DNA of 64,000 nucleotides from NCBI GenBank assembly GCA_947623455.1, contig OX392530.1, positions 27,931,405 to 27,995,404 on the forward strand, written 5' to 3'. Source of the stretch: Mimachlamys varia. Taxonomy: Eukaryota; Mollusca; Bivalvia; Pectinida; Pectinidae. The notes beneath the pieces were generated by a model, which worked only from the letters and a program-made list of their open reading frames with translations, was not told where the DNA came from and did no database searches. Shown here one piece after another: positions 12,825-43,047 of this stretch. A program made the translations under genes and the position numbers. Position 1 is the stretch's first letter. The number at the start of each line of letters is the position of its first letter.

Positions 12825-13025
12825 AAAACATCGCTTTAAACAAAGACACGAATCAGAGTTCTACCCAAAGCAGCAACTGGGGCAGCTCTAAAGCCGTAGA
12901 CGGATGTGTCCTCCAGTACGTAACCTCCAACTGTTGTACACACACGGCAGCTGGACAGACGGCCTGGTGGCAAGTAGATCTACAGACCCAGTCCGTCATA
13001 GACACCGTGACTATCATATACAGAA
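12825..13025 (+). CDS. Exon encoding the N-terminal half of an FTP (fucolectin/F5-8C-like) domain
   Basis: The frame reads ENIALNKDTNQSST, then SSKAVDG, then CCTHT, then AWWQVDL and DTVTIIYR. These are the landmark blocks of the eel-fucolectin/tachylectin-4/pentraxin (FTP) lectin domain: NIAL start, AVDG, the Cys-Thr-His-Thr block and WW.VDL. The exon is bounded by an acceptor (TTATTCTAG) and a donor (GAA/GTAAGT). It is 201 nt long, starting with two bases of a split codon and ending with one (phase 1). Such domains bind fucose-like sugars in secreted proteins, and in bivalves they often precede EGF arrays. The second half of the domain does not follow on this strand. A phase-matched second half lies on the minus strand at 42802-43047. 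No upstream or downstream + exon was identified. Confidence 0.85.
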
Positions 13026-13283
13026 GTAAGTTTTACTGGACGAGAACTTGTTTAGTCACATCTATCAACAATTCCCCTCTAAACATAGAAAGCACAATGT
13101 TTGTTTTGGTCATGTTTATGGTTGAACATAATGATTCTGTTTAACGTGCACAGTTCCTGTAAAACTATCATTAAATACCCTATTAGAAGTGATAAAAATA
13201 ATAAAAAAACTAGAAATTGTTTCTGAACAATTTGACGGGCTTTTCACACCTTTGTCAGATTGTGTCTTTAGTGAAAGGGAGGT

Positions 13284-13918
13284 AACTCTTACATATTATC
13301 TGTACATGGGATTATAAATTCAATTAAAGAGCAGTACATCACTCAAAAATATATTGCAAATAGTAAAGATGAAAAATATCTCTTGAATTTTCAGAACGAG
13401 TGGAAAAAATGGAAAAAACTTATTGATATTCCCTAAACCTGTGATTTGCCGATCATAATCTTATCCTAATAACAATATTTGTTCTTCAGAGAAAAAAAAA
13501 AAAAAATTGCGAAATTAAACATCTTGATTAATTACCTACTGACATCTACATATTTAATACCAGATTTGAACTTTTTATATCTGACATTTTATTTTCCATA
13601 CTTTTATTTTTGCTTTCCTCCTCTCATACCTTTACCTGCTTTTCTTTCGTTTTCTTTCTTTCCTTCCTTCCTTCCTTCTTTCTTTCTTTCTGCTTCTCAT
13701 TCTTTTTTTTTTCTTCTACTCTAGATCTGATTTTTCTATCCTTTCTATATAGCATTACAATAGATAAAATGCCACTTACAAAAAGAGTGAATGGAGTGTT
13801 ATAAAAGTGTGTGAAAGTGGAATATATTGTGTATAATTGTAATATGTATACTATTGTAATGTGAAAAAAACTTTGAAAATAAACAAATAAAAAAAAAAAA
13901 AAAAAACTCTTACATATT
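13284..13918 (+). mobile_element. 5'-truncated LINE 3' end with 14-bp target-site duplication
   Basis: The 14-bp direct repeat AACTCTTACATATT sits at 13284-13297 and 13905-13918, flanking an insert of about 607 bp. The insert starts inside a reading frame whose end reads YLLNFQNEWKKWKKLIDIP then stop (about 13310-13433), which resembles the C-terminus of L1/Tx1-type ORF2 proteins. A 3' UTR follows with a pyrimidine-rich tract, AATAAA-like sequence near 13878 and a poly(A) tail at about 13888-13906. Target-site duplication, 5' truncation and tail together are the signature of target-primed reverse transcription. Confidence 0.88.
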
Positions 13919-13975
13919 GTAAGAACTACTTCCCTTTTACCACTGATAGACAGTAAACCATTTTAATACAAAGAA

Positions 13976-15265
13976 TATATAGGGAAATTTTCAAAATGGC
14001 TTACTTCCTTAACCGGGAGTGCTATCAAGACACCGAAGGTATCAATATCATCGGAATGACATACTCTATTGATCTGTAGAAAAATAAAACAAAAATAATG
14101 AAAAATGAAAAAACTCTAAAAATAGATTAACTTTGACCTCCGCTGCCCTTTTTGTACGAGACATATTTTGCAATAACTTGTAGAACAAGAAACTTTTCCC
14201 CAGATGTAATCTACCATAAAATACCTTTAAAACATCTGGATATTAAATGGTTATTGAGATATAGCCATTTTAACATTTTGAAGTATGACGTCAGAGCGGC
14301 CATCTTGGATTTTGAATCAATTTAAAAATATCAAACTTTAGTCGGGACTATCCCGCGATCATTTTTGACAAGTTTGAGCTGAATCCCACTGTTGGAATTT
14401 GAGAAGAAGTTTAAAATGTGAAACGGTTTTTTATATAGATTATATAGGGAAATGTTCACAATGGCGTAATACCTTAACCGGAAGTGCTATCAAGACACCG
14501 AATGTATCAATATCATCGGGATGACATACTCTATTGATCTGTAGAAAAAGTTTTCACAAATAATGAAAAAAGAAAAAATTCTAAAAATAGATTAACTTTG
14601 ACCTCTTCTGCGCTTTTTTACGAGACATATTTTGCAATAACTTGTAGAAGAAGAAACTTTTCCCCACATGTAATCTACAATAATATACCTTTGAAACATC
14701 TGAACATAAAACGGTTATTGAGATATAGCCATTTAAACATTTTAAAGTATGACGTCATAGCGGCCATCTTAGATTTTAAATCAATTTAAAAATATCAAAC
14801 TTTAGTCGGGACTATCCCACGATCATTTTAGACAAGTTTGAGCTGAATCCCACTGTTGGAATTTTGAGAAGAAGTTTAAAATGTGAAACGGTTTTTTATA
14901 TAGATTATATAGGGGAAAATTACATATGGCGTATACCGGAAACCACATGTGTTACATAAAAACTAAACACATCAAATTCATCAGAATGACATTGTGTATA
15001 GATTGGTCAAAACAAATTTCAAAAAAAATTAAAATTAAAAAAAAAAAAATTAAAATTTTTTTTTTTTTGATTTTTGACCCAATGGCGAACTTTTTTTATT
15101 TCAACTCCAAAGTACCTAAATGTGTGACAAAAAAAGTTAGATATGGCTTATGTCTACAATAATATCATTACAGAAACTCTGAACAGCCAACGGTCATTGA
15201 AATATGGCTATTTTAAAGTTTTTAACTTATGACGTCATGGCGGCCATCTTGGATTTTGGACCTAC
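13976..15265 (+). repeat. Three tandem copies of a ~465-bp dispersed repeat
   Basis: Copies lie at 13976-14441, 14442-14906 and 14907-about 15265, the third being diverged. Each starts ATATAGGGRAA, contains 'ccggaagtgctatcaagaca' (copies 1-2), a 'tagaaaa' plus A-rich stretch, and near its end a perfect TGACGTCA (14286, 14750, 15230) directly followed by AGCGGCCATCTTGGATTTT or a close variant. Copies 1 and 2 are near identical. There is no reading frame. It looks like a non-autonomous repeat, and another diverged copy lies at 10.56 kb. Confidence 0.88.
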
Positions 15266-15373
15266 TTCGTTATGTTGCTGTCACCCCTTTGGCTCATGCC
15301 AAATACAATGGGCTTAACTGAATTGACATACCTCTTACCATTTTTGCATAATTCGTGTCACAAAATGAAATGC

Positions 15374-15445
15374 AGAATAATAATAATAATAATAATAATA
15401 AACAGAACAGAAACAATAGGACTTTTCACCACAAAGTGAAAAGCC
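15374..15445 (+). repeat. (AAT)n tract followed by a perfect hairpin
   Basis: A run of AAT repeats (about 15377-15402) is followed by AACAGAACAGAAACAATAGG and an 8-bp perfect hairpin, CTTTTCAC / GTGAAAAG, with loop CACAAA (15422-15443). The order microsatellite, short linker, hairpin looks like the terminus of a dispersed element, possibly the end of the repeat family just upstream. Confidence 0.6.
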
Positions 15446-17209
15446 TTTGTTTGGCTTTTGGTACATGCACAACGCAAATATGTTAACATATGTTATATAA
15501 TTCGGCATTTATTAAGTGTATATACTGATCTCACCAACGCTAATTTGATTAGAGATACTAGAACAAAAGACATACACATATCACTGTTAAACATAAATTA
15601 CTTTTATAAACGATCGTCATATCGCAAGCTACATGTACCAAACAGTTTACATGGACGTCACATTAAGGTTGTACGAAATGAACCGTTCCGTAGAAAGGAC
15701 TCCCTGTTTTTCTTATCAGCGAGTATAACTATATTCGTACTACATATCAAACGTCATTAGTTTTCCGTTTACACCACACACATAATGTGAAACGTGTTAA
15801 AGCTATTCAATTGTTTTGGCTTGTCTCTTCTGTTACGATCTATTTTATTAATACTGTCTCATGAGTGAATTATGGAAGCAGTGTACTGTAAATATTTCCC
15901 AATTCCTAAAAGTAAACGGCATTACCCATATACATATAACCATGAATAGCTAGTCAATTCCTGCATAGCACATAGATACCCATACTTATTATATACATGT
16001 ATTAACTTACATGTAAGTTTAAATACATATTGTTAAGATGATGGATTCATTCGTGATTTTTGTTTTTGTCATAATTCGAACACGTGAAAGGTATGAGACA
16101 TGTTTTGTACTAGTACGAATTGCAATGTTTACCTTGACAGTGGGGAACGGGTGTAATACAATTAAAGCAACGACACGTCATATTGGATAATACACAATTT
16201 ATCCGTGATCGTACATTACACCGACATCACAAGTATATGTTCATGGTAATACAACGTCATTCAGCTGATCGTACTACGGTGTTGTGTCTCAGTCCGACTA
16301 AGTCAATTGTCAACTTATACGTCTGTAGCCCCCCTCCCCCCGTATATGTGATTTTCCTGACCGGAATAGAAATTTCTGGACATGCTTCAAGATTTTGAGT
16401 GTGTTTTTTCAAGCTTATCATTGTTTTTTTTTTACGGATTTCCTTATTCCTTATTGATGTTCATTTTTTGCTGAAAATTTTGTACAGTTACTTTTCAAAC
16501 AAAAAGAGGAAAACAGTTTGCCTACACATGCAAAAGCATTGCATGACACATACATGTATATGCAAAATGCTTGCTACATGGACAAGACGAAAAGCCTGAG
16601 TAATTATTTAATAACAAACTTTTCCTAGTATTTCATATATGGGCAGATGTTTATAAATAGAAACAAAGATACAGAATATACTTGCTAATACCAACATCAT
16701 GCTGTAAGCGGCAATTTTATTGACAGATTCGTGTTTTCTCTACTTTCTTTGCATTAGTAATTCTTGTTTTGTATCGCATTGGTTGGTACAGCCTCAATTT
16801 TGGCTTGGTTTCAAATATAGTCTACCACGTTTAGTACATCTATATTAAATGTGCAGGTAGTAAGTCATTTACGGGTTAGTTGCTTTTCTCCCGAAAACGT
16901 TAAGTATTTAGGATTATTGGAAGAAACGGTTAACCAGTTGTCAGTATATTCGATTGCAAATACCTTGTTTTTTGAAATGCTGTTTTAGTGAGTGAGGTAC
17001 ATTTAGTACTATAAAATCGGCATCAGATTCGTGCTATCAGAAGGAGGCAGATAGACAAACATACCATTTTCAGCCAGCCTAAAGACAAATGTACCATTTA
17101 CACATACTCAGCACTTTCATGAGATTTGCGTATGCTTTACACAAATAAAAACTCAATTATTGGGAAGCTTACACAAAATGAATATAACTGCAAATTACTA
17201 CAATCAAAA
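15446..17209. other. Non-coding stretch without recognised features
   Basis: Open frames here are short and have no recognisable motif. An AT-rich region with scattered ATG-TAC palindromes (for example near 16008) is all that is visible. Confidence 0.5.
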
Positions 17210-17495
17210 TAAATAAGAGAATACCAAAGTGTTAACATAACCATTATCCAAACTCAAAATCGATTAAACCAGGGGCAAAATATGAACAAAGGAAAGATTC
17301 ACATGGAGATTCCTTGCAAGAGAATAAGACCAAGTGTTCCGGAAGAGTAAGCGTCTTCTGCTTCATCGACGACACCCGTCATGTAAATCTTAGTCACATA
17401 ATAGTAGACATCAAGTTCTCAAAATGAAAACCGAATATCATTGTCTATCACAACAAGTAAACACACTAATGAGCAAACTCAAAAACGTCCATCTT
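17210..17495 (+). repeat. Dispersed repeat family B, copy 1
   Basis: Shares the ordered blocks 'gagaataccaaagtgt', 'aactcaaaatcgattaaac', 'tggagattccttgcaa', 'agaccaagtgttccgg', 'gtaagcgtcttctgcttcat' and 'cactaatgagcaaactc' with copies near 29.15, 32.2 and 43.69 kb. All copies are in the same + orientation. No intact ORF spans them. It appears to be an old interspersed repeat of unknown class. Confidence 0.75.
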
Positions 17496-17821
17496 CCTAT
17501 CACTTAAAGATACAGAATATTTCTCAATGAGACAAATATGGCGATCATAAAACTTGCCCATAGTTCTGATCAACCTGCATCTCTCGAATCCTTGTGTTGT
17601 TAGTTTGTTTGTCAGCAGTCGACATCGATCACGAAAATCCCGATATTTAGAGGGATGTTACTATCAAGAAATGGAAATTTAACGATCGGAAAATTGAAAT
17701 CATCCCCTTTATCGTATAGCTTAGTAGTAAGCTGTCCATGCTGGTCTTAGTTTAAGTAGAGATCGAGGTAAGCAGCTGATGTAGAAGAGTCTGTTGTGTC
17801 CTTTTTTTCAAGTCCATAAGG

Positions 17822-17985
17822 GTACAGTTGTGGGATCGCAAAACCTTACACGATGTGCGGTTGGCGCACGGTGGGCGAACGGTGTATGCACGATGTGTGA
17901 ACGTTGCAATCCTGGGCGATTTATTCTAACGCACATGTGGGCGCACGATAAACTAACATTGTGCGATGACAATCGTGGTTGATGT
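17822..17985. mobile_element. MITE-like element rich in ACGATG/GTGCG words, copy 1
   Basis: The left end, TACAGTTGTGGGATCGCAAA, has a loosely matching inverted counterpart near the right end (TTGTGCGATGACAATCG). The interior is made of repeated words such as ACGATGTG, TGTGAACG, TGCACGATG. A related element with better preserved ends lies at 30001-30190. The short open frames inside are by-products of the repeat. Confidence 0.6.
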
Positions 17986-17989
17986 AAAG

Positions 17990-19395
17990 GAGTAGGGCCA
18001 CGAAAGGTCGTAACTGGCCCTGTTGTGGAGCCCAATTAGAAAATGAATATATTTCAAATGTACAATAATAAAATAATGATTGAAGTGTTGAACTTTTATT
18101 GTCAATATCATTTTGTCAGAATTTTTTTATAAAATATGCCACAATAAGGCAGTAAACACACGAACATATGCCCAAATGGTGAAATTATTGAATTTTAGTG
18201 AGGAAATTTCAATATTTCATAGTGGCCACATGCCTCGACCAGCGTATATTTTTCAAAACAAAAACTATTGCCAAAGCATGATTGAATGACCATCATATTA
18301 TTTTGGTCGAAGCCTGTGGCCACTTCGAAAATTGAACTTTTTCATGTTTAAATGTGGTGGTATCTTTCGTCTCTGACGTGATGCACCACTTTATAATTAG
18401 TTTATTTATCTTTAAATTATTGTATAAATACTATCGGTAAAATATTGTGATTCTGCAACCTCTTTTTCCTTCTGAAATAATACCTTTACTGAATTTGACT
18501 GTGTTCTACATTAATGATCCAAAAAGTATTACGATTGTAAAATGAAGTGTAATCGTTGTGCATCGTCGACGCAGTATCCATGGACGCTATTTTACGCACG
18601 ACGAAAATTTAGAAGATGCCTTGACGTACCTGTTATCGGAATGCAGCTCTAGGTAAGTACTACCAAAAGGAAGAAAAACAAACACCAAATCCTTCTCAGT
18701 CTAGATTAATGCGTCCTTTTTTTACTTATTCCATCCCTTGTTGCTATTTGGAGACGATGTTTCGTTACAAGCTGAAGTGTCTGACACTTGACAGATCGAG
18801 TTGCGTCAACAGCAGCTGGCCTACAGTACTTGTACTGTAGGCGAATCGGCAATAAGAGAGCAGTTTTTATTGTTGGTGTATATTTTAATTACTAATTATG
18901 CATTAATAATTTATTAATAAATACTCGACCTTAAATATGCGAATTGTTAACACTGTTGAACAACTTTTAGGCTGTAAGCTTAGTATTGTCGTCTGCTTCG
19001 GAAACAAATAGCACGTAATTTAACATAACAACCGACGGCTTTGATTTCTAATAATAACGAGCTTTGTAAATCTATTTTTGAAATCAGTGAAGAAAAGTGG
19101 ACAGGCCTAGGTGTATTATCTAAATTATCTAAATTATAATAATAATAATAAATTATAATAATTATAATTAGAGATAGGTTTAGGTTTAGGTGGTTCCGGT
19201 TTGGATTTCCATGGTGGATACAGCTATTCACATCGAAGGAAAACGATCGACAGCAATCACTGGTAATACGGGCTTTAGCCCTATTTATTGGTTGAATTTG
19301 AAATATTGAAATATTTTGTGAGACATTGAAATTATTCATGATGTGACAGTAGTTCATATTTTGTACATTTCGCTGACTCAATTTGGGTCGGCAGA
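17990..19395. other. Flank and possible 5' UTR of the LINE
   Basis: No gene is seen. A 24-bp near-perfect palindrome (18819-18842) and an (ATA)n tract at about 19130-19170 lie here. The 5' end of the LINE must fall somewhere before 19396, but I cannot find a matching target-site duplication, so the boundary is unresolved. A short TTTAGG direct repeat near 19180 is too short to be telomeric. Confidence 0.5.
18819..18842. repeat. 24-bp palindrome
   Basis: GCCTACAGTAC and GTACTGTAGGC form 11-bp perfect inverted arms separated by TT. It could be a cruciform-forming site or a binding site; function unknown. Confidence 0.8.
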
Positions 19396-20682
19396 ATGGG
19401 AACCAGAGGCGACCAACATGGCGGCTCGCGGAATTACAGGAAAGACTGTTCATATTTGGTCAAAGTTGGTGATAATAAACTTATTACTGCTAAGGATACC
19501 ATAAATACTATCGAGAGTGTATGTGGTGTCGGGACATTGTATGCTTGTGTTCCTAAAGGAAACGATTGTTTTGAGGTGACGCTCGACGGCAAGACATCGG
19601 GCCAACTGATATTTGACGGAGTTCATATAGGCACCCGTGCGTGTCCGGTGACGGAGATAGTTAAGTCATTTTTGATGGTGTCTTTCCTGCACATACCTGC
19701 CTACATTGAGGATGCAGAGATTCTCGCGAAACTTGAACTTTTGGGGGTTGAGATTTTGTCGCCGGTGAAACGGAGATTTTATCCAGGTACGACCGTTGCA
19801 GATGGAACGCGTTTTGTTAAAGTACGATTACCCCCGGAGTTACCGTCGATTCCCTATACCGTAAAGTTGGATAATTCCTATTATCGGGTAGTACATGACA
19901 ATCAGAGAAAGATGTGTAACTTATGTCACTCTTTGGATCATGTATTCAGAGATTGCCCCGAGTTTTCCTGTTACAAATGTAATGGTCAGGGCCACTATGC
20001 TAGGAATTGTTCGACCCCTCCGTGTAGCCGATGTGGTACTATCAGAGTGAACTGTCAATGTGACGAGGTACATATCTCATCCCTATGTGACAGATGTGGT
20101 GAACGTGGTTCCCAGTGTACTTGTACAGATGGGAGTAGTGAGGGGGGAGGTGACATGGACCAGGTGTGTTATACCTGTGACACGTGTGAGCAGTTGATTT
20201 GTACGTGTAAAAGTACAGCTCACAGTTCTGATGTTGAGGGTAATGATTCTGATGGGAGTGATGATGGGAATGATGCTGATGGTGATGAGGACGATGATGA
20301 TGATTTTGATGACGATGGCCTTGACCTTGACCTAGAGGGACCGGCTGATGATGTGGCGGGAAACCGTGTCGCAACTACGGATGACGTAACAATAATATGT
20401 GACGTCCAGGGTGATGTGACGGAACTTTCTCCAATTCTGCACGATTCGCAGAATCTTGACAATGATTCTACACAAACTGGTACTTTAGTTAATGATGAAT
20501 GCAAAGATGGGGAGGAGGGATCTCAAAGTACGGAGATCCCCTCTCCCCAACAGATTGTAGATATGACTGATGCGGAGAATTGGGCTGTCGTTTTGGCTCG
20601 AAATAAACGGAAATGTAAACCAGCCTCTTCTCCCGTTACTCATAAGAAGGGAAAAGTACTTCGTAGCAAAACAAAAAGGTAA
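19396..20682 (+). CDS. LINE ORF1, CCHC zinc-knuckle nucleic-acid-binding protein
   Basis: A 428-residue protein, presumably the RNA-binding partner of ORF2 in the ribonucleoprotein. The N-terminal ~170 residues look like a folded RNA-binding region. Two perfect CX2CX4HX4C knuckles follow at about 174-187 and 192-205, then three further CxxC-type clusters (about 210-222, 231-243, 258-271) that are not CCHC. A very acidic stretch runs from about 283 to 319, and the C-terminus is basic (about 410-428, KKGKVLRSKTKR). The layout matches the ORF1 class of Tx1-like LINEs as I remember them. The first ATG is at 19396, just after a TTGGGTCGGCAGA leader. Its stop codon TAA (20680-20682) is immediately followed by the ATG of ORF2 in the same frame. 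Confidence 0.9.
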   Translation: MGTRGDQHGGSRNYRKDCSYLVKVGDNKLITAKDTINTIESVCGVGTLYACVPKGNDCFEVTLDGKTSGQLIFDGVHIGTRACPVTEIVKSFLMVSFLHIPAYIEDAEILAKLELLGVEILSPVKRRFYPGTTVADGTRFVKVRLPPELPSIPYTVKLDNSYYRVVHDNQRKMCNLCHSLDHVFRDCPEFSCYKCNGQGHYARNCSTPPCSRCGTIRVNCQCDEVHISSLCDRCGERGSQCTCTDGSSEGGGDMDQVCYTCDTCEQLICTCKSTAHSSDVEGNDSDGSDDGNDADGDEDDDDDFDDDGLDLDLEGPADDVAGNRVATTDDVTIICDVQGDVTELSPILHDSQNLDNDSTQTGTLVNDECKDGEEGSQSTEIPSPQQIVDMTDAENWAVVLARNKRKCKPASSPVTHKKGKVLRSKTKR

Positions 20683-23600
20683 ATGGATTCGTTCATGTAC
20701 ATTTGTCTACTTCTTCTAATGTTCAGTTTATATTCTTTTAACTGTAATGGCCTTAGAGATGTGGACAAAGTTATGAAAGTTTTCACCATGTTTGAAGAAA
20801 AAAATGCAGATTTAGTATTACTACAGGAAACATTTTGGTCGGATACATTTATAGAACAGATTAAAAATAAGTGGAATGGTCGTATTATTTATTCCAATAG
20901 TGATAACAGTAGACAGGGAGTTGCTATCTTGGTTAAGAATGTAATCAAGGATTGTATAGTAAATAGTGATGTAGTTATAGATGGCCGGTTGCTAAGGGTA
21001 GCTATCAAACTTGATGACAAGATTTTTAATTTATTTAATGTGTATGCTCCAAATATCAATAGAGAAAAAATATTGCTTTTTGATAAGTTATCACAGGAGC
21101 TGCAGAAAGGCTATGAAAATACTATTGTGGCTGGGGATTTTAATACAACCCTAAGTCAACTGGACAGGTCTGGTTTAACTAAACATTGTGAAGATTGCAG
21201 TGTGTTAAGATTGAAAACTGTTATTAATGAATTTAATCTATGCGATATATGGAGAAATAGGAATCGAGATTGTTCGGTCTTTTCCCGAAAGCAAATAAGA
21301 AATGATATTTTTTCACAAAGTAGAATTGATTATTTCCTTATTGGAAGACAATTATCAGGAAATGTACGTAATATGTATTATAACGATACATCATATAGTG
21401 ATCATAGTATTTTAACCATGCGACTTGATTTAAGTGAAGTAGAGAGAGGTCCAGGTTTGTGGGTTTTGAATAATCAATTTTTATTTGAAAATGAATATGT
21501 TGTTAAAATTCAAAACATTATTTCACATGCTAAACGTGATGAATTGTTCTTAAATGAACCACTGGTCTGGTGGGACAATTTAAAGTTTAAAATTAAGAAA
21601 ACCTCCCAATTATTTGGAAAAGCACGACAAAAAGAAAAGAATGCTCAATATTTTCAGCTTCAGAAGAGGTTGACAGATATTTCAGGTAAAATTGTTGGTT
21701 CTAATGATAAATGCCTTTTTAAAAAATTTCAGAAATTGAAAGCGGAATTAGAACGATTTGAAGAGGAAAAATGTAAGGGTGCGGTTTTACGTTCTAAAGC
21801 TAAGTGGGCGATTGAAAGTGATCGTAACACTTCACATTTTTTACGACTAGAAAAACACAGACAAAGTTTAAAAGTAATTAAAGAACTTCAGAAAGAAAGT
21901 GGACATGTTATAAATGATACGGACTCAATCATTGATGAAATTTATCATTTTTATAAGAAACTATACTCGTGCGTTAAAGTCGATGCTGATGATATTGATG
22001 GTTTTTTACAGTGTATTGATAAGAAACTATCACAATGGGATAAAAAATGTTTGGATTTTCCTATCTTGGAGGAAGAGGTAAAATCCGCATTGGAGGGCAT
22101 GGCCCATAATAAAAGTCCTGGACAAGATGGTCTAACGGTAGAATTTTACAGCAAATTTTATGGTATTTTGAGTGATGTATTTCTTCGGATTGTTTCTGAT
22201 ATTGAGCAAAAGGGCGAGCTATCGAAATCAATGAAACTTGGTGTTATAAGTTTGGTTTTTAAAAATAAAGGGGATCGAAATAACCTTAAAAATTGGAGGC
22301 CTATAAGTCTCCTTAACGTTGACTACAAAATCTTAGCCAGAATTATGTCAAATAGGTTGAAAACTGTTTTACCAAGCATTATCTCCCCTTATCAAAGCTG
22401 TTGTATTGTAGGGCGGGATATAGCTGATAATATTTCATGTATACGGGATGTTATAGATCTTGCTGAATGTGATAAATTAGAGGGTTATTTACTTAAAATT
22501 GATCAAGAGAAAGCTTTTGATAGAGTTAGTCATGTCTATCTGGAAAAAGTTCTTCTGAAATTCGGCTTTGGAGAACGCTTTATTAAATGGATTAAAATTT
22601 TTTACAATGGAATTCATAGTAGTGTCAAATGTAATGGCTTCTTAACTAAATATTTTCCCATTTTGAATTCAGTAAGGCAGGGATGCCCTATTTCCGCAAT
22701 GTTATATGTTTTAACTGCTGAACCATTAGGTCAAACTATTTTAAAGAATATAAATATTAATGGAATTCAAGTGCCCTTGTCAAATAATGCGGCCAAGGTT
22801 TTTCAACATGCTGATGATACAACGTTGACTCTATCCAATAAAACTTCTATTAATGAAGTTTTCAATGTTTTGGCAAAATATGGTAAAGTATCTGGGGCCA
22901 AAGTTAACATTGAGAAATCAGAGGTGATGTGTATTGGTGCAGGTGTACTAACGGAAGAAGAGGCTCGTGTATTTCAAGTAAAAATCTTAAAGAACTTGAT
23001 ACTTGTACTGGGTGTATATCTAGGTCCAGATGTCAAAACATGCCAGTCACTTAATTGGGAAAGTAAAATTAATTCCATTAGTAAGATTTTGAAACTGTGG
23101 TCTCAGAGATATTTAACTATTCAGGGCCGTGTTACTGTTATTTCATCGTTGTTGCTTTCGAAATGTTGGCATGTCCTGTCTGTAGCTTCAATATCGGAGT
23201 TGCACAAGGCTCAAATAAAAAATATGTGTTTAAAGTTTCTCTGGAATAATGGTAAACATTTAGTATCGTATAAAACGATCATAGGCCTGAAAGATAAAGG
23301 AGGACTGCAGTTTCCAGACATTGATTTGAAAATGAAATCTTTCAGAATAAAGTTCGCATTTAGATTTCTCATAAATGATAACATATTATGGAAAGACACT
23401 GGTAAATACTTTTTGTCTGCAATAGGAAATATGAAGCTTGGTTTGTCTTCTTTGAATTGTAATTTTAAAAGTTCACAATTAAATAAAATTCCGTTTTTCT
23501 ACCGAGAAATGCTACTTGCCTGGTCGGATATATTTCAGTTCTTAAAATTTCAGGAGACAAGTGATAGTTTATATAGTCAGCCTGTATTTTTTAATCCTCT

Positions 23601-24573
23601 CTTTCGGAATGAGGACAAATTACTTAACAGTGTTTTGTTCATTCAAGCTGGTCTTGTACATGTAAAAGATTATACTTACGAGGTACGTCCAGGTTTACTT
23701 CCAATCCAATCCATTGTTGAAATAATTCACGAATTTAATCCAGACATTCCGAGAAAAGACGTAATAACACAATATATCCAGGTAATTAAAAGCTTTCCAG
23801 AGAATGTTCGTGCTAATATAATTAATCACAGTTATGAGAAAACATGTGCGATAGATCCCGTTGTAACATTACAGAGGGCAGACGGCACGCACGTGTTACC
23901 ACGATCTACGCGTGACATTTACACTCTCCTGTTAAGCAAGGCGTTTGTAACACCCGTAGCGATTGAGTTTTGGGGAAATAAGTTTCCGGATGAACAGGTG
24001 GACAGAGCTTTTCGCATTATTAACGCTCCAAATTATCCAGTTGAAGTAACGGAGGTACATTTTAAAGTCGCTCATAATGTTATTTTTACACGTCAGAAAT
24101 TGTTCATGTTCGGTATAACTGATACAGATGATTGTCCAGTTTGTAAGAGTGCAACGGAAAATTTATGGCACATGTTTTTAGAATGTGAAGAATTAGACCG
24201 GTTTTATTTATTTTTTACCCCTTTACTTGAAAAGTTGTTTGTTAGTGCAAGCGTTGACAATATTAATAGTATAAACTGTGATCGGCTTATTTTACTTGGG
24301 TTTTACGAAAAATGGAAGAAAGTGAATAGTTATATAATAAATTTTACATTGAGTATAGCACGATATTGTATTTTTAAAAGACGAAATCTTGTCATGTGTA
24401 AAGAAGGTAATGTAGATATTATAAATTTTTTCAAGTTCACTTTCAAACGTTTTGTACATTACATCTTTTCCTATTTTGTCAACACGTCCAATGTGGCAAC
24501 TTTCATTAAGTATTTTACCTCGTCTAATGATATCGTCTTATTGAACGACTGTGATATTCAAATTGTGTTTTAA
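20683..24573 (+). CDS. LINE ORF2, endonuclease-reverse transcriptase
   Basis: 1296 residues. The endonuclease domain occupies about 15-250, with NCNG (20-23), QET (48-50), GDFN (151-154), RIDYFL (214-219) and SDH (239-241), all expected catalytic motifs of the APE-like LINE endonuclease. The reverse transcriptase follows at about 465-760: NWRPISLLN (537-545), KIDQEKAFDRV (605-615, metal-binding Asp), RQGCPIS (665-671) and HADDTT (709-714, active-site Asp pair). A C-terminal CX2CX8HX4C motif sits at about 1151-1168. No stop or frameshift interrupts the frame. Translation presumably starts by reinitiation after the ORF1 TAA, or the stop is read through, because the two ORFs share a frame. The family call (L1/Tx1 group) is inferred from domain order. 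Confidence 0.95.
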   Translation: MDSFMYICLLLLMFSLYSFNCNGLRDVDKVMKVFTMFEEKNADLVLLQETFWSDTFIEQIKNKWNGRIIYSNSDNSRQGVAILVKNVIKDCIVNSDVVIDGRLLRVAIKLDDKIFNLFNVYAPNINREKILLFDKLSQELQKGYENTIVAGDFNTTLSQLDRSGLTKHCEDCSVLRLKTVINEFNLCDIWRNRNRDCSVFSRKQIRNDIFSQSRIDYFLIGRQLSGNVRNMYYNDTSYSDHSILTMRLDLSEVERGPGLWVLNNQFLFENEYVVKIQNIISHAKRDELFLNEPLVWWDNLKFKIKKTSQLFGKARQKEKNAQYFQLQKRLTDISGKIVGSNDKCLFKKFQKLKAELERFEEEKCKGAVLRSKAKWAIESDRNTSHFLRLEKHRQSLKVIKELQKESGHVINDTDSIIDEIYHFYKKLYSCVKVDADDIDGFLQCIDKKLSQWDKKCLDFPILEEEVKSALEGMAHNKSPGQDGLTVEFYSKFYGILSDVFLRIVSDIEQKGELSKSMKLGVISLVFKNKGDRNNLKNWRPISLLNVDYKILARIMSNRLKTVLPSIISPYQSCCIVGRDIADNISCIRDVIDLAECDKLEGYLLKIDQEKAFDRVSHVYLEKVLLKFGFGERFIKWIKIFYNGIHSSVKCNGFLTKYFPILNSVRQGCPISAMLYVLTAEPLGQTILKNININGIQVPLSNNAAKVFQHADDTTLTLSNKTSINEVFNVLAKYGKVSGAKVNIEKSEVMCIGAGVLTEEEARVFQVKILKNLILVLGVYLGPDVKTCQSLNWESKINSISKILKLWSQRYLTIQGRVTVISSLLLSKCWHVLSVASISELHKAQIKNMCLKFLWNNGKHLVSYKTIIGLKDKGGLQFPDIDLKMKSFRIKFAFRFLINDNILWKDTGKYFLSAIGNMKLGLSSLNCNFKSSQLNKIPFFYREMLLAWSDIFQFLKFQETSDSLYSQPVFFNPLFRNEDKLLNSVLFIQAGLVHVKDYTYEVRPGLLPIQSIVEIIHEFNPDIPRKDVITQYIQVIKSFPENVRANIINHSYEKTCAIDPVVTLQRADGTHVLPRSTRDIYTLLLSKAFVTPVAIEFWGNKFPDEQVDRAFRIINAPNYPVEVTEVHFKVAHNVIFTRQKLFMFGITDTDDCPVCKSATENLWHMFLECEELDRFYLFFTPLLEKLFVSASVDNINSINCDRLILLGFYEKWKKVNSYIINFTLSIARYCIFKRRNLVMCKEGNVDIINFFKFTFKRFVHYIFSYFVNTSNVATFIKYFTSSNDIVLLNDCDIQIVF

Positions 24574-24716: not shown

Positions 24717-24732
24717 CCCTATTGACGGGAAA

Positions 24733-25967: not shown

Positions 25968-26063
25968 CTGTGCACTGACCGTAGTCATTGCTACAGACGT
26001 TGATTTTACAGTTAAGTGGGCACGACTGATTACAAAAACTGCTAAAGAATCCATCAGCACATT
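25968..26063 (-). CDS. EGF-like exon 9 (most 3' seen)
   Basis: A 96-nt exon between acceptor TTAATTCAG and donor ACAG/GTAAGG. It reads CADGFFSSFC, NQSCPLNC, VCSNDYGQC, giving the Cys spacing of one laminin/MEGF-type EGF repeat. Phase 1 at both ends. It belongs to the minus-strand multi-EGF gene. No later exon of this gene could be found before the LINE. Confidence 0.8.
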
Positions 26064-27192: not shown

Positions 27193-27285
27193 GAAAACAA
27201 TGTCCTGACGTTTTGTCACACGTGGTACTGCCACAGCCAACAGGACATGGTGTACAGATTGATCCATAAAACCCATCCTTACAAT
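27193..27285 (-). CDS. EGF-like exon 8
   Basis: A 93-nt exon: acceptor TTTTCAG, donor TTTTC/GTAAGT. It reads CKDGFYGSIC, TPCPVGC, STTCDKTSGHCF. Phase 1 at both ends. It is closely similar to the exon at 32521-32613 (both with CTPCP and TSGHCF), so these two share a subtype and probably arose by exon duplication. A long open frame in another phase here is only a shadow. Confidence 0.85.
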
Positions 27286-27814
27286 CTGAAAACAAAGTGT
27301 AAAACATTTTAAACAGGATCGAAACAGACAGAAATTCAAACATTTTTTACCAGTATCGAATAGTATTCACTTCACTTTCACATATTTTAATTAATTGACC
27401 CTACGCTTGATTAGATCTACACGTGATCAGTAAAACAAAAAATACAGGCCTGAAGAAAAAAATATTCCATTTGTTGAATTTCCCTATTAACTTGATTTTC
27501 GAACCACAGAAAATAAGCAACCAATGTCACAGGGCACCAACATGTTGATTATAATAATTCAATTGATTTTTATTCAGCAGAAACTATACCTATGATGGAC
27601 AGACGAACGGACGCTGAACTCACAACCATGACGAAAACTCGAAACTTCATAAGTTGTGATACATGTATCTTACATGATTTGATAGTCAACATTACATTTC
27701 CAACTATCCCAAGTTTTCATTCAGCGTGTATTAAATCAGTATCAAACAATTTTTTTGGGGGGTTTTAAATAATTACAAATGACTATTTTTGATGAAAAAG
27801 GAAAGAAGGCTTAC

Positions 27815-27910
27815 CTGGGCAATGACCGCTGCCCTTGTCACAAACGTTGTTTAGACAGTTGCTGGGGCATGGCTTGTTACAGAAATTACCGTAAAATCCA
27901 GCATCACATT
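27815..27910 (-). CDS. EGF-like exon 7
   Basis: A 96-nt exon: acceptor TTTTTAAG, donor CCAG/GTAAGC. It reads CDAGFYGNFC, NKPCPSNC, VCDKGSGHCP. Phase 1 at both ends. It is very similar to the exons at 29360-29455 and 31847-31942, including the acceptor and donor flanks, indicating a recent tandem duplication of exon plus flanking intron. Confidence 0.87.
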
Positions 27911-29149
27911 CTTAAAAAGAATCGAAACGATTCATTGTGGAGTCTTTCAAAAGCTTTCACTTCATGAAGTCGAGAAAGAAAAAAAATCCATATTTACTTA
28001 TATCATAGATATACAACGTACCGATTTATTAAACAGAGGGCTGTATCGCTCATCGGATTTCCATATAACTAATTCAAATGTACCTATCCATAGAGTCATG
28101 TACGTATACACAAAAATATATATCGAAGTAAAATATTGTTTTTTGTTTGTTCACTGAAATAGTTATTTTAACTCTAAATATATCAGAAGGAACTCAGTTG
28201 TCAAATACGTATTACATATAAACCTATTATTCTTGCTGAAATAGGTCAATGCATTTTTTTAAGTGTGTACAATTGCAGATCTATCAACAAATTTGTCGAA
28301 TTGATTAGTTTTACCATTAAACATCATGCGCTTCTTTATTTTCTAGGATATGCCTTAATATTGCTTGTAATATTTTAAACAAGTGTAGAAAAAGCGATTC
28401 TTATTTACTAATTTCCTACTTATACAATGTACAGAATTATAAAACAAAGGGGCCACAAACCAAAAACATTGTATCCCTCATCGGTTCTTAACTAATTACA
28501 AATGTACTATTTATGTATTCATCTAAGTTTACACAAAATATACATATATACAAAGTAAAATATTATTAGAATTACTGGTCTGTTCAATTAACAAAATAAT
28601 CAAACTCCAAAAGTATCAGAATGTACCTTGCCAGATACGAATAAAAGTGGTGAAATGGAAAGAATATTTAGTTCGTCTTTTCATGTGGCTAAATTGTCAA
28701 TGTATTTCTTATTAAACACCTTTTTAACGATTCTTCCTGCATAGAACCGTTATGTTTTGTGCATTGAGATATAATGGAAAGCTTCTGTGTTATACCCGGT
28801 TTCTTTGATGAGAGGTTCTGGGATCATTAATAACATAATAGGCAAATACAATGTATATCAAACTATGATTTAGATCGTTTTTAGAAATAAGGCTTGCTTT
28901 GTATGAAAATCATAAACATGTTTGTTTTTAAGATACAGTTTCATAACAAAATATATATCGAAATATTCTTGATCACACAATGATTCGATTGTGCTGTTTA
29001 CCTGGGTTTAAGCCGAGTTAAAGTTCATGTAACAACATTAGGACTTAAATCATAGGCCTTGATATATAATAGTTGATTACCACGAGAAGATCAGAATCAG
29101 CTTTCAGTTTCTAGAAACCAAACTCGATGTAAATAAATGTGATAACCAC

Positions 29150-29290: not shown

Positions 29291-29359
29291 TCATTATCAC
29301 ATGTTTTGAATTTTTAAATTATTACAAATTATCATTTTTTTATGAAAAGGGAGGCTTAC

Positions 29360-29455
29360 CTGGGCAATGACCGCTGACCTTGTCACAATCGTTGTTTTTA
29401 CAGTTACTTGAGCATGGCTGGTCACAGATATTACCGTAAAATCCAGCATCACATT
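29360..29455 (-). CDS. EGF-like exon 6
   Basis: A 96-nt exon: acceptor TTCCTAAG, donor CCAG/GTAAGC. It reads CDAGFYGNIC, DQPCSSNC, DCDKVSGHCP. Phase 1 at both ends. Nearest relative is the exon at 27815-27910. Confidence 0.87.
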
Positions 29456-30000
29456 CTTAGGAAAATATGAAACGATTTATTAAGAAACCCATGAACAAGC
29501 TTTCCTTCGGGAAGTCGATATAGAAGGAATAAATTGTTCCTTATTTACTTATTGCCTTCTTACACAATGTACCGAATGAAAAAAAACTTGAGTGGCCAGT
29601 TTTTACCAAGTTATACACTGCACCTGTACATGGACAATATGTGTAGATGTCTCTGGCCCGGGGCACTTACAATACTCGCTTATGTGTGTAAACACAGGTA
29701 AAGTGGTGGGGAGGGGAGGGGTTTTTTAAATAACTAATTATAAGAGTCCAGTTTGTTTTCATAACGGTTCCTCGGTAATGGCTGTCGAATACGTAGCGTT
29801 TCGCCGCACGCAGGACAGGTAAAACTCTGGCATGCTATTTACCTATTCTGTTACCTGGTAGCTAAACCCGCACTTGGCTGTCTCATGGTCACTGTAATAC
29901 TGTTTACGGTATATTTTTAAATTGACATAATCCAAATAAATATGATTCGAATTTAAATAGTTTTTGGACAAGAGGGTTCCATATGTTTTTTTTTTATTCC

Positions 30001-31265: not shown

Positions 31266-31846
31266 CATCCAGACAGACAAATTATTTATCAAATTAATAA
31301 GTTATATCGATTTAACATCACGCTCGTCATTTTCTTCTAGGATAGGTGACCAAGTGACTGAAAACATTTTAAACTCGTCTAGATAATCATTCATGTTTGA
31401 AATGTGTTCCCAAAGTTTAACATATCTTAATAGACCCTACACTTGAGTTAACCTACAAGCTATTGGTAAAACCAATGGATAAAACGAATATTCCATCTGC
31501 TTTGTTTCACTTACAATTACCATTCAAACTAAATTACTTGATATACAAGCCATTGGCAAATAGACAACCTATGTCACAGGACATAGGACATCAATATGTT
31601 TATTATAATAGTGTAATTAATTCAGCATGATTGACGTATGTGATATTTGAAAAAAAAACAAGATAACGCATTTTTGTGTGAAAAAAAGTACTTGTCTACG
31701 ATTATAATTCCAACCCTTGTATATCCGTTACCTAGCAATTATTTCGAGTTATCAGTTAATGGCATGTAATATTTATCAAAAGTTTGATGTGAATTTCTAA
31801 CTAATTAAAAGTGACAATTTTTGATGAAAAATGAAAGTATGCTTAC

Positions 31847-31942
31847 CTGGACATTGACCGCTGACCCTGTCACAAAAGCTGTGTTTACAGCTACCGGGAC
31901 ATGACTGATTACAGAAACTTCTGTAAAATCCAGCATCACATA
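31847..31942 (-). CDS. EGF-like exon 5
   Basis: A 96-nt exon: acceptor CTTTTAAG, donor CCAG/GTAAGC. It reads CDAGFYRSFC, NQSCPGSC, FCDRVSGQCP. Phase 1 at both ends. Third member of the near-identical trio with exons 6 and 7. Confidence 0.87.
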
Positions 31943-32199
31943 CTTAAAAGGAAACGGAAAAATTAATAAAGAAGACATTTTTTACTTCATAAAGTAGATA
32001 TACAGAGAATGAATCGTTCCTTTTTTCTTTACTTATTTCCCTACTGATACACTGTTCCGAATGATAAAAAAGGTCCACAAGGACTGTATCGCTCATCGGT
32101 GGATGTAAAAGGGATGCATTTACAATATGTATGGTTTGCCATTGATCATCAAGAAAAGACCCGAGTCAGCATTAAATAAATATGATACTGTGTAACCAT

Positions 32200-32430
32200 C
32201 CTCTGTTGGTTGCAGAGCAATCAGAGAATACCGAAGCGTAAACAAAACTAAAATCGTAACTCAAAATCGATTAAACTAGGGACAATTATGAACAAAGGAC
32301 ATATTGATACATATCATCGAAAATGTACCAGAGAACAAGACCAGGTGTTTCGGTAGAGTAAGCGTTTTCTGCTTCATCAACGATACTCACAATGTACATA
32401 AGTAAGTCTAGGTCGTATCCAGGAAAACGA
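32200..32430 (+). repeat. Dispersed repeat family B, copy 3
   Basis: Blocks 'gagaataccgaagcgtaaac', 'aactcaaaatcgattaaac', 'caagaccaggtgtttcgg' and 'gtaagcgttttctgcttcat' match copies near 17.2 and 43.7 kb. Intronic to the EGF gene. Confidence 0.72.
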
Positions 32431-32520
32431 CTTGATATCAAAAAAGGTATAAAGGCCATGATGACCTATGTAGTATTAATCATTAAAGCCTTATATGATA
32501 AGTATATATCTACTACTTAC

Positions 32521-32613
32521 TAAAACAATGCCCTGACGTTTGGTTACACGTGTTAGTGCTACAGCCACTAGGACAAGGTGTGCACGCTAGCCCGTAGTAT
32601 CCGTCATCACAGT
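32521..32613 (-). CDS. EGF-like exon 4
   Basis: A 93-nt exon: acceptor ATTTTCAG, donor TTTTA/GTAAGT. It reads CDDGYYGLAC, TPCPSGC, NTCNQTSGHCF. Phase 1 at both ends. Same subtype as the exon at 27193-27285. Confidence 0.87.
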
Positions 32614-34809: not shown

Positions 34810-34896
34810 CTGTACATTGGGCATTGAGACAGCTACCGTCCTTACAGTTGGCTGGACATCTATAGAATATGCCCGAAAATCCCGTGTTGCAACCTC
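34810..34896 (-). CDS. EGF-like exon 3 (divergent)
   Basis: An 87-nt exon: acceptor TTTTACAG, donor ACAG/GTAACT. It reads GGCNTGFSG, YRCPANC, SCLNAQCT. Phase 1 at both ends. It is one of the shorter repeats and has Tyr-Arg where a Cys is expected early in the repeat, so its disulphide pattern may differ. Confidence 0.75.
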
Positions 34897-35962: not shown

Positions 35963-36690
35963 CTGAAAATGAAATTGGGATTTGTTGACATTAAAATGAT
36001 AAGTAATATCGCTTTACAAAGTTGTATAACTTATTTCAATATCAAAACTAGAATTCTTAACTCGATAAGTATGTTCATAAAGGGCTTGTCAAAATGCTTT
36101 GCAAAATGTTTTACAGTGTTGCATTCTGAACAAACAACTAGTCATACTTTCATATTGATGTTTATGTCACTTGGGTAGTTTATGAACAATAATCATATTG
36201 TTACATTAATCAGAATTCTTGACATTCAAATAACTGTGAAACTTGTTGTGTATGTCAGCGTTTGGCAGTTTAGAAATAGATTCATTTTTGGTGAACTTTT
36301 GCACAGAACCACTATTGGAGTTTTGCTCGAACGACTACACGTTTTCGTAATATTAAACATTGATGTGTTATTTTGGTCATAGATGAGAAGCAGTTACGGC
36401 CAGGACTTATATAAAATATTCTAACAAGAAAAAAATAGCATTCACCATGTAGAATGGACTATTTTTTCTTACGGTCCAGATGGGAATGTGGTGTGTTTCT
36501 AACACATTGCGAGAACAGTCACTTTGTATGTCAGTACTATTTACATACAAACGATAGGTATTGGTAGCTGGATGCTTCATAACAAGACGTAGCAAATACT
36601 TTTCTTTACATGCTGTTATTATTATTTTCCATAGCTACACTAGCAATATATATATTTTTTTAATTATCATGTACATATAAGAATACGTAC

Positions 36691-36780
36691 TACAGCCGGA
36701 AGTTGTATCACATATGTTACTGAGACAGTTCATGCAGACTCCATTACAATTTCCGTTTCCGTACTTTCCATATGGACATC
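36691..36780 (-). CDS. EGF-like exon 1 (first after the FTP exon)
   Basis: A 90-nt exon: acceptor TTTTTTCAG, donor TGTA/GTACGT. It reads GCPYGKYGNGNC, NGVCMNCLSN, ICDTTSGC. Phase 1 at both ends. The sequence would link the FTP domain to the EGF array; 6 kb of intron separates it from the FTP exon. Confidence 0.83.
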
Positions 36781-36829
36781 CTGAAAAAATGAGAGTTCCA
36801 ATAATGATTCTCGACAGTTCCATTTTTCA

Positions 36830-39800: not shown

Positions 39801-42800
39801 ATATATTTTCTTTGCAGTTTTTCTTTGCTTAAACATTACAATAAACATTGTCATTTAGTTCTATAATAATTATAACCATTAGATACTCAGTCTTAGGTGA
39901 ATGAAAATCTACCGTTTAGTTATCAACGTTTTAAAAACCCACACCATTTTCGACCGTTTTTATTTTGTACATGTATTTATCCATGCTTCTTGGCATTTTG
40001 ATTATTAAAAATAAATCGTTTAAAACTTTTTATAGATTTGACCCCAGTGATCATGACCTTAATTATAAGTTAAGGTAATTTATTTTCACAAACTTTGTCT
40101 GGCTTCTTCAAAGGAATATTTTATGCAAATATCATATTTCTATGCCCTCTGATTGATCGGAAGAGTTCTTTAAAGGTGAACAACCACCCATTTCTAAAAC
40201 ACGCAAATAAGAGTTAATTGCCATTCTAGCTTTTCAACAAACAAAAATCCGTAATTGAGTATTTTTAACAATTTGAAAGCGACCCGTTTACTAAAAGTAT
40301 GCAGTTACTTCCCTTTGGTTGTGATGTAATTTGCGACGATCGGAAAAGCTCGCCAGCTGTCCTTCAATGCAAACAAACGACAAAGTACACTGCTGTGCTG
40401 AACCACAGACTCACCTGCAATCTTTCTTTCTTTTTATTTCAACTATTTTGAGCCAGAAAGCTTCATGAAATATCCACGGTTGGTGTCTTCGACAGGCTTT
40501 GAACCTAAAAATCTGAGGTTATAGGCCTAAAACCAATAGTCTTGCCTACTCGTTTTAAATTGGAAACGAGGACGGAGCAATGCCGTACAGACGGAGACTT
40601 GGGGTAGGCATACATCATATTAAACAATACTAAACCTTAATTATTGTTTTTCTTTTAATTTTTTTTTTCTCAGAGAGTAATCTTAATTATTGGTAAGGAA
40701 GTTTACAGCAGACTCAAGAGAACTGTAGATAGGGTAATCGGCAGCAAGTTTAGTATTGGTCTACCTTCTACACTTTGACTTTTTTAATTGAAAAGTGATA
40801 TTTACATATTACAGATTATGTTTAGCAGCATTGCCCTTAATGTATATTTCTTACGACTTCAGGCAATGGAAGATAGCGATAATTTATTTAATTTCTTTTC
40901 TTACAGGAAGGAAAGACGATGTTTTAAGCTTAAAGGAAAATGTTTGCGGATAGTTGACACAGTTTTTCCCAAAGGCGTGTCAATGTCCATCTTATAAATG
41001 TTCGGTAGTCCTCAAATCCAATGGATTTGCAAATTATACTAGATTTCTACTTAAGAAATCACATTATTGGTTCCGCTTTGAAATACATGTACTTCTCCAA
41101 CATTTATTTTGAAATATTTAGAATAGACATCTATTTTTTTAGAACTGAAATTGCCACAAATGTGTGACTGCTTCAAATATCTTCGCCATCTCCTTTTTTT
41201 TGGCTATCTAATAAACAATGTCCTAAAATATGCATATTTATTTAGGTGCTTAGAAAAAATCACATTTTGATGTTTTAAAATTATTCATCATCAATGGTTG
41301 GCGCCATCAGGGGAAAATAATGAATCTGTGTTTTCCACATGATGCAAGATACTGCCTGATAAAATTATGACAAGTTCGCTTTTAAATTAACTTTTTTTCT
41401 GTGACAATATATCGGGATACTTATTGCAATACATTCTTTCTTCATGGCAATACGATTAAGGCGTATTTGGCACCCCTAGGTCGGAAGACTGGTAAATTTC
41501 CCCCGACACTGTAAATATGTCGACCACAGTGTTTGTGAACTTGTGAAGATCTAGATTTGTAATTGTACGTGCACAAGAATAAATGGTTGTACTGAGTGCT
41601 ACATTTGTATCAATATTCAATACAGAGTAAGTTTTATGTTTTGATTATGTGTAGTCATCTGCAAAGTTGCCACTTGTGTGATCTAAGTATTTAGCTAGGG
41701 TAAATAGACTGAACTACCTATTAAAAAGGCTATTATAATTGTTGGAATTTAGAATTTTAATTCAGAGCTGATGAGTTTACCGGGAATGAAAGCTTATAGT
41801 ATTCAAACATGTATGTAAGTACTGCTGCCTGTTTTTTTAGATCTGATCCAGTTCTGAATATACTAAAGGCCTGATTATATTTTTTATGTTTAATAGAGCT
41901 GCAGTAGATATAGCCTCCCCATACAAAGATTTAAAGTAAGCGTGCATGAAACGTCCTACCATATTGGTCCCTCATATATTTATCTCAGAGAACAACAGTT
42001 TACTGTAGATTCTATCGTATTTGAGCATGCCGCATGCTGCTGTCATGATGAAACATAGATATGGCGATGCATTCTCATTAAACTGTGTCATAACCTTTAC
42101 ATCATAATATAAATGCAACACGGTAAAATCATAATTTGGGTCAAATTTGTTTTTTGTAGTGAAGACTTTTTACGATCAATTTGGTTCAAAGCTTTTACAA
42201 GTCGACGTTAGGCAAGTATTATGATGCAAGTTTTCCTGTCCTTGTTAGCTGTCACTTACATCCAACTTCAGATTCACTGATCACCTAATCTTCTGATCAT
42301 TTTTGTTCAAACATTGATTTCCTCATTGTCGCTAAAATCCCCAAAAACTTTCCCTCCAGTACCAAGCCTAGCTAGCTTGACGTGCATGGCTTGAAACAGG
42401 TGGTTGCGATCGTCGCAAATGACTTTACAGTTTTTTCCGATTCAAGAAAGATAACTCCTGCTAACTTGAATTTGAGATTTTTAATGTCGGTTTCAATATT
42501 TGCATATTTTCGTTATGTTTATGTTTTATAAATTATTTATATTTTGCAAAGGTAATATTTGATACATATTCCAAAAAAAATAAATAAAAATGTTGGGAAA
42601 ATGAAATTGGGTTTTTATCAGCTTTAACAGGTTTTAACACTTCATACTAAAACGAATAAGCAGTGAAATAACGCCCAATGTATTACCCAATAGTAAACTA
42701 AACAAGCATATCCAATAAGAAGAGTGATGAAACTTGTAAAGGCATGACACAATATAAGAATGTCTCAAAGTTAATACAGTGATTGATATACGAAAACTCA

Positions 42801-42801
42801 C
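36830..42801. other. Long intron between FTP and EGF exons
   Basis: No exon recognised. It holds a (TATG)n run near 38378, a tandem-like repeat region at 39.0-39.8 kb, and a B-box-like site on the minus strand near 40500. An open frame at 37670-38038 on + has no recognisable motif. Confidence 0.5.
39020..39796 (+). repeat. Dispersed repeat with internal ~125-bp units and terminal hairpin
   Basis: The core GGC(C/T)ATTTTG-like motif recurs near 39140, 39334, 39455, 39580 and 39710 with similar surroundings (for example 'ccaatcagaggc', then 'ggcggccattttgttt', then 'catACCAArTTTCAT'), at about 121-131-bp spacing for the last three intervals. The region ends with a hairpin, ATGTCCC / GGGGCAT, around CACGAA (39776-39796). 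A similar hairpin occurs inverted at 9511-9534. Confidence 0.6.
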
Positions 42802-43047
42802 CGTAAACCTGTACCTCACACAGTTCCAGTAGAGCCTCGTCCGAGTACCAGGTGTAAGCTTTAACTCGTCGGTCGTTGTAGATGGTCAGATACCGAGCCA
42901 CACCTGGACATGTTATGTCCTGTGTAACAGACATAAATGCCAAGTCAGGTGTTGTGTCTTTGTGACACCTGTTCCCTGATGTCCACTCTGGTGTATTAGA
43001 CAGGTATACCTCGTATCCGGCCAGTCTGTTTACCAGTTCGACACGAT
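42802..43047 (-). CDS. Exon encoding the C-terminal half of an FTP (fucolectin-like) domain
   Basis: A 246-nt exon: acceptor TTGTATAG, donor TACG/GTGAGT. The frame reads RVELVNRLAGYEVYLSNTP, then RCHKDT, then CPGVARYLTIYND, then LLELCEVQVYG, the typical second half of an FTP lectin domain, including its paired Cys residues and the LCEV.V.G end. Phase 1 at both ends, which matches the exon at 12825-13025 exactly: the join would read through YRN RVEL. No N-terminal FTP exon was found on this strand at higher coordinates up to 64 kb. Confidence 0.88.

What the first reader, a model, noticed from the sequence alone, without database searches (positions are those of the whole stretch)
12825..43047. 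Two halves of one FTP lectin domain on opposite strands, 30 kb apart: inversion or assembly flip
The + exon at 12825-13025 is the first half of an FTP domain and ends in phase 1. The minus exon at 42802-43047 is the second half and starts in phase 1. The split codon would be AAT. The EGF exons follow the second half in order towards lower coordinates. Turning the segment between about 13.1 and 43.1 kb around would place the second half right after the first and all EGF exons behind it, restoring a standard FTP-EGF gene. No other matching halves were found on either strand. A real inversion would break the gene or be a polymorphism; an assembly error would have the same look.
Basis: partly seen in the sequence, partly recalled or inferred. 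Interest (0 to 1): 0.82.

Follow-up and report, generated by a model that had tools for sequence, protein, structure and literature searches.

The report
Split lectin-receptor gene in scallop DNA
A gene for a sugar-binding surface protein, most likely from a scallop, appears to have been cut in the middle of its lectin domain, its two intact halves now lying 30 kb apart and facing opposite ways; a local inversion is one likely cause, but two broken neighbouring copies would look much the same.

Summary
By protein similarity the window is scallop DNA. A + exon (12825-13025) is the first half of an F-type-lectin/F5-8C-like (FTP) domain; a - exon (43047-42802) is the second half, followed downwards by nine EGF exons (36780 to 25968). 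All 11 exons are phase 1-1, open, with AG/GT sites. A profile scan finds one half of each kind. Both fall nearest one Mizuhopecten subfamily (supported for half 1, weak for half 2).

That one gene was inverted is not shown. Flipping the segment does not restore a standard gene: transmembrane, tail or phosphatase parts of the relatives were not found in the window. A 220-bp inverted homology (15.7/48 kb) fits two gene copies or an old repeat. An assembly flip is less likely: no Ns, no long inverted repeat. Partners outside the window would need introns over 50 kb and 20 kb, against at most 6 kb here.

Verdict: a real rearrangement in the mid-domain intron, as one inversion or two broken copies at about equal odds. 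A review reports recombination in a mid-domain intron of oyster bindin lectins.

The parts
12825..13025 (+). FTP/F5-8C domain, first half; phase 1-1 exon, ctag|AA ... GAA|gtaagt
42802..43047 (-). FTP/F5-8C domain, second half; phase 1-1 exon, tatag|AT ... ACG|gtgagt
36691..36780 (-). EGF exon 1 (CPYGKYG...)
   Evidence: 76% identical to Mizuhopecten P0001 over 29 aa
35861..35962 (-). EGF exon 2
34810..34896 (-). EGF exon 3; lacks one cysteine that 9 of 9 rows with this EGF type keep in alignment A1
32521..32613 (-). EGF exon 4
31847..31942 (-). EGF exon 5
29360..29455 (-). EGF exon 6
27815..27910 (-). EGF exon 7
27193..27285 (-). EGF exon 8
25968..26063 (-). EGF exon 9, last exon found
15672..15890 (+). 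one arm of a 220-bp inverted homology, without the 372-bp insert of the other arm
47880..48460 (-). other arm of that homology, with a 372-bp insert at 47965-48336

Best explanation
This is a member of the scallop FTP-EGF receptor family (annotated in relatives as scavenger receptor F-like, draper-like, MEGF10-like or receptor phosphatase-like). It was broken by a genomic rearrangement inside the phase-1 intron that splits the lectin domain. The simplest history is one recent inversion, which left the first-half exon on the + strand and carried the second half and the nine EGF exons, as one block, to the - strand. Shown: both halves, their phases, open frames, a common subfamily (supported for half 1, weak for half 2), and no partner on the same strand within the window. 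Inferred: that the two exons were once one gene, and that the inversion happened in the animal rather than in the assembly. If so, neither piece can now make the whole lectin domain from this chromosome.
For: One half of each kind in 64 kb. Both halves sit nearest Mizuhopecten P0001/P0002/P0009/P0049: in the half-1 tree in a 6-row set that also holds P0005 (99/96), in the half-2 tree with the same four only (84/50, weak). Partners outside the window would need introns of at least 50.9 kb and 20.9 kb; the nine measured introns are 0.5-6.0 kb. All 11 exons are open with AG/GT sites; over 1,263 coding bases, neutral decay without a disabling hit is under 5% likely beyond 1.2-2.1% divergence, so the break is young or the pieces are still under constraint (simple model). 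No N in the window. The only inverted homology found that bridges the segment is about 220 bp.
Against: The last EGF, transmembrane or cytoplasmic exons were not found in the window on either strand. Half 1 lacks a residue before AWW where 20 of 20 comparable rows have one, and EGF 3 lost a cysteine, which suggests relaxed constraint or fragments. In the half-2 tree P0005 leaves the group and support is weak; Pecten P0006, second best by score for half 2, was not in the trees. The 220-bp homology lies downstream of half 1 in its sense and upstream of half 2 in its sense, as two copies of one intron would. The family is multi-copy; several Argopecten and several Pecten members share one contig, judged by equal contig length, so orphan exons are not rare a priori (inference).
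Confidence: 0.4

Rival explanations
1. Two different copies of the same subfamily lie in opposite orientation in a scrambled gene array. Each has lost its other half by deletion or partial duplication.
For: Multi-copy family, apparently clustered (equal contig lengths); 3' parts not found on either strand; the 220-bp homology between the two flanking intron-side regions; a one-residue gap in half 1 and a lost cysteine in EGF 3.
Against: Needs at least two breaks instead of one; all 11 exons are open and spliceable; no second copy of either half in 64 kb. The 220-bp homology may be only an old dispersed repeat, since other dispersed pairs occur in the window, and it does not extend convincingly on either side.
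Confidence: 0.35
2. Assembly error: the 30-kb block was joined the wrong way round.
For: It would leave every exon intact, as seen. The window holds a 6.2-kb 34-bp satellite that could trouble assembly.
Against: No N in 64 kb, so no scaffold flip across an unfilled gap. No inverted repeat long enough to mislead long reads was found: the best bridging pair is about 220 bp at about 70% identity (one search masked the first 6.4 kb). The 34-bp arrays lie outside the segment.
Confidence: 0.15
3. Nothing is broken: both genes are whole, with very long introns and their partner exons outside the window.
For: Sequence beyond the window could not be searched. A mid-domain intron of very variable size is reported for oyster bindin (PMC5712786 section 12).
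Against: It needs introns of at least 50.9 kb and 20.9 kb, against at most 6.0 kb for the nine introns measured.
Confidence: 0.1

Closest known systems
Mizuhopecten yessoensis P0001 (cell death abnormality protein 1-like isoform X2, 646 aa)
   Same: FTP half 1 (71%), half 2 (78%) and EGF 2-9 in order (58%); EGF 1 (76%)
   Different: One chain with an N-terminal hydrophobic leader, more EGFs, a hydrophobic membrane-like segment and a tail (read by eye); the window has only the FTP halves and nine EGFs
Mizuhopecten yessoensis P0049 (receptor-type tyrosine-protein phosphatase epsilon-like isoform X2, 1075 aa)
   Same: In the window's group in both half trees
   Different: Ends in phosphatase domains (PF00102); tblastn found none in the window
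Oyster (Crassostrea gigas) bindin F-type lectins
   Same: An intron in the middle of each lectin domain, where recombination is reported to make new combinations (PMC5712786 section 12)
   Different: Sperm proteins with one to five lectin repeats; the section speaks of recombination, not inversion. Whether the intron position is the same was not tested.
Fish F-type lectin FBP32 (PDB 3cqo; the fish is recalled)
   Same: Best solved relative of the joined domain, E 4.5e-12; a His and the first Arg line up in half 1 and a second Arg in half 2. That these are the fucose triad of the eel lectin (named) is inferred.
   Different: The loop after the first Arg is one residue longer here and has RNR where FBP32 has RGD; the review places the introns splitting the FBP32 domains elsewhere (eel Glu123-Cys124, passage)

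Membership tests
Scallop FTP-EGF receptor family | FTP/F5-8C domain followed by an EGF chain in the same order | tested here: met
   met as a whole only if the two halves belong together
Scallop FTP-EGF receptor family | Whole FTP domain on one strand | tested here: not met
Scallop FTP-EGF receptor family | Signal peptide exon | tested here: inconclusive
   No clear match; the in-frame stretch MYFITTVSTAIIQIIHFIL just before half 1 aligns with leaders of relatives but could be intron read-through
Scallop FTP-EGF receptor family | Transmembrane segment and cytoplasmic tail or phosphatase domains (some annotated models lack them, e.g. P0003, P0022) | tested here: not met
   nothing convincing in the window; one search left out - strand hits within the EGF block (25.9-37 kb) and showed the best 30
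F-type lectin (fucose-binding) | His...Arg...Arg fucose triad | tested here: inconclusive
   Residues line up with FBP32, but they are split between the halves and the loop is one residue longer
Real inversion | Both breakpoints seen against an uninverted relative | not testable with these tools
   No other scallop DNA was obtained; own-genome search unanswered

The most novel reading that the evidence does not exclude
The mid-domain intron of bivalve FTP lectins is a recurrent rearrangement point, and in scallop FTP-EGF receptors it works through segment inversion. Haplotypes would differ in whether, and with which, second half a first half is joined. This would be an orientation polymorphism that reshuffles the two sides of the fucose pocket, in line with the recombination reported for oyster bindin.
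Probability: 0.07. Interest if true: 0.7.

Novelty: new member of a known kind. Interest (0 to 1): 0.33.

Why it matters
If the inversion is real and young, it is a clean case of a receptor gene split inside its ligand-binding domain. Bivalve haplotypes are reported to differ in immune-type gene content and to carry megabase inversions (pearl oyster, PMC9646362, passages), and putative inversions are the subject of a king scallop paper (PMC9532988, listing only). It would also add a second bivalve lectin family whose mid-domain intron is a breakpoint. If it is two broken copies, it is ordinary turnover of a gene array.

Tried and rejected
An inversion by recombination between transposon copies was considered and rejected. 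The LINE at 19.3-24.6 kb has no second copy in the window at protein level, and the one bridging inverted homology found (about 220 bp, about 70% identical) is too diverged for a break as young as the open exons imply (inference). Reading that homology as a duplicated intron, hence two gene copies, could not be told from an old dispersed repeat. The stretches next to it gave only weak matches.

Transcripts of the same species across the join were sought with a 179-aa query; 2 proteins of 26 candidates came back, from Pecten and Argopecten, 67% and 60% identical. Phosphatase and transmembrane parts were sought with 24 further relatives and 13 C-terminal pieces (- strand hits starting within 25.9-37 kb were left out and the best 30 shown; the best was 26 bits): nothing convincing. 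A scan of genome contigs with half 2 gave no relative. Rfam gave nothing at gathering scores. A structure model of the joined domain was not attempted, since the join is not a contiguous translation of the window. The third protein search widened the set of relatives to 70.

Trees used 51 of the 70 relatives; 19 without an alignment over nearly the whole joined domain were dropped, P0006 among them. The half-1 tree had only 70 columns; the bootstrap of the half-2 tree had not settled; the half-2 tree also held the first 25 residues of EGF 1.

Literature: six searches (one search listed 10 of 233). No title in the listings names an inverted FTP-EGF gene. In PMC5712786 I saw passages and section 12; in PMC9646362, passages; for all other papers, search listings only.

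Full report
What is there. The window (64,000 bases, 35.7% GC, no N) is most likely scallop DNA: the closest proteins to its lectin-EGF exons are from Mizuhopecten, Argopecten, Pecten and Ylistrum, the best 58% identical. The + exon at 12825-13025 and the - exon at 43047-42802 are open, lie between AG and GT, and are phase 1 on both sides. Joined, they read as one FTP/F5-8C domain of 148 residues, which scores 42 bits against PF00754 (cut-off 28.2), while half 1 alone scores 27 bits and half 2 alone does not match that family. The joined domain finds FBP32 (4.5e-12), two platelet aggregation factor chains, two fucolectin-related proteins and the lectin 1k12 among solved structures; two further matches at 0.7 are unrelated proteins. 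The split codon is A|AT, Asn. In the alignment of relatives the residue there is Asp in 13 of 20 rows, Asn in 3, Glu in 2, His in 1 and Gly in 1; P0012 and P0023, not homologous at that place, are left out. So the join is allowed but is not the commonest form.

Are there other halves? Two profiles, built from 51 relatives without the window, were run over all 2,779 six-frame segments of 15 residues or more. Half 1 was hit once (5.9e-30, next best 0.058) and half 2 once (2.6e-35, next best 0.89). tblastn with 46 relatives and 24 more agrees. So the first half has no second half in the 51 kb downstream on its strand, and the second half has no first half in the 21 kb upstream on its strand. The nine introns measured in the - strand block are 529 to 6,021 bases.

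The EGF block. Nine EGF exons follow half 2 at 36780-36691, 35962-35861, 34896-34810, 32613-32521, 31942-31847, 29455-29360, 27910-27815, 27285-27193 and 26063-25968, all phase 1-1. EGF 1 matches Mizuhopecten P0001 172-200, and EGF 2-9 align with P0001 204-456 in one colinear stretch. Further EGFs, the membrane segment and the tail of P0001, and the phosphatase domains of P0049, were not found in the window. Turning the segment round therefore gives a lectin domain with nine EGFs, not a complete standard receptor gene.

Do the halves belong together? By score, half 1 is nearest P0002 (76% identity), P0001 (71%) and P0009 (72%); half 2 is nearest P0001 (78%), then Pecten P0006 (74%), P0002 and P0009 (75%). 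Trees of 52 rows put half 1 beside P0001, P0002, P0005, P0009 and P0049 (99/96), and half 2 beside P0001, P0002, P0009 and P0049 with weak support (84/50); P0005 lies elsewhere in that tree. This fits one gene, and also two recent copies of one subfamily.

State of the exons. In 1,263 coding bases there is no stop or shift, and all 22 splice dinucleotides are present. With an indel-to-substitution ratio of 0.05-0.15, the chance of this under neutral decay falls below 5% beyond 1.2-2.1% divergence (a simple model). Signs of slackening: one residue is missing before AWW in half 1, where 20 of 20 comparable rows have one (Glu in 18, Thr in 2), and EGF 3 has lost a cysteine kept by 9 of 9 rows with that EGF type in alignment A1 and by P0049.

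Inversion, flip or two copies? The window has no N, so a scaffold-level flip across an unfilled gap is excluded here. No inverted repeat of 60 bases or more spanning the segment came out (first 6.4 kb masked) and a more sensitive search found one bridging inverted homology: 15672-15890 (+) with 48460-47880 (-), the latter with a 372-base insert. With the insert skipped, its alignment score is 85, against 19 +- 3 and at most 30 for 300 shuffles, so it is real. It is about 70% identical, too diverged to have mediated a break as young as the open exons suggest. It lies downstream of half 1 in half 1's sense and upstream of half 2 in half 2's sense. If it is a piece of the mid-domain intron, it is present twice, which speaks for two gene copies. 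If it is an old dispersed repeat, as others here (17.2, 32.2 and 43.7 kb), it says nothing. I could not decide between these.

Judgement. A rearrangement with a breakpoint in the mid-domain intron is well supported. One inversion of one gene (0.40) and two broken copies in opposite orientation (0.35) are close. An assembly flip (0.15) and whole genes with giant introns (0.10) are less likely. A review of F-type lectins reports that oyster bindin diversity arises partly by recombination in an intron of very variable size in the middle of each lectin domain (PMC5712786 section 12); the same review places the introns of fish FBP32 at another point of the domain (passage). The scallop break may be a relative of the oyster process, but that is inference, and the identity of the intron positions was not tested.

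Limits. The own-genome search did not complete in ten tries, and no scallop DNA other than the window was obtained, so the decisive comparisons were not made.

Noticed in passing
19342-24570 (+): An apparently intact non-LTR retrotransposon: a 446-aa open frame (stop to stop) with a zinc knuckle, then a 1296-aa endonuclease-reverse transcriptase. It lies between the two lectin halves.
   Followed up: partly
1-6226: A 34-bp satellite, about 182 copies, at the left edge; a second 34-bp array with a different unit at 11604-12163.
   Followed up: no
48461-48795 and 49432-49759: Direct repeats of about 335 bp, 95.5% identical, 636 bp apart; by eye the ends do not look like a standard LTR.
   Followed up: partly
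17217-17524, 32219-32399, 43714-44008: Three copies of a dispersed repeat, all in one orientation, 71-76% identical.
   Followed up: no
46330-46695 (-), 55503-55988 (+), 52824-53612 (+): Transposon remnants: DDE_3 (just below the curated cut-off), HTH_Tnp_4 (above it), and a weak zf-RVT match (below it).
   Followed up: no
27701-28033, 29302-29586, 31736-32071: EGF exons 5-7 and their intron flanks are tandem duplicates of one another, 72-77% identical.
   Followed up: no
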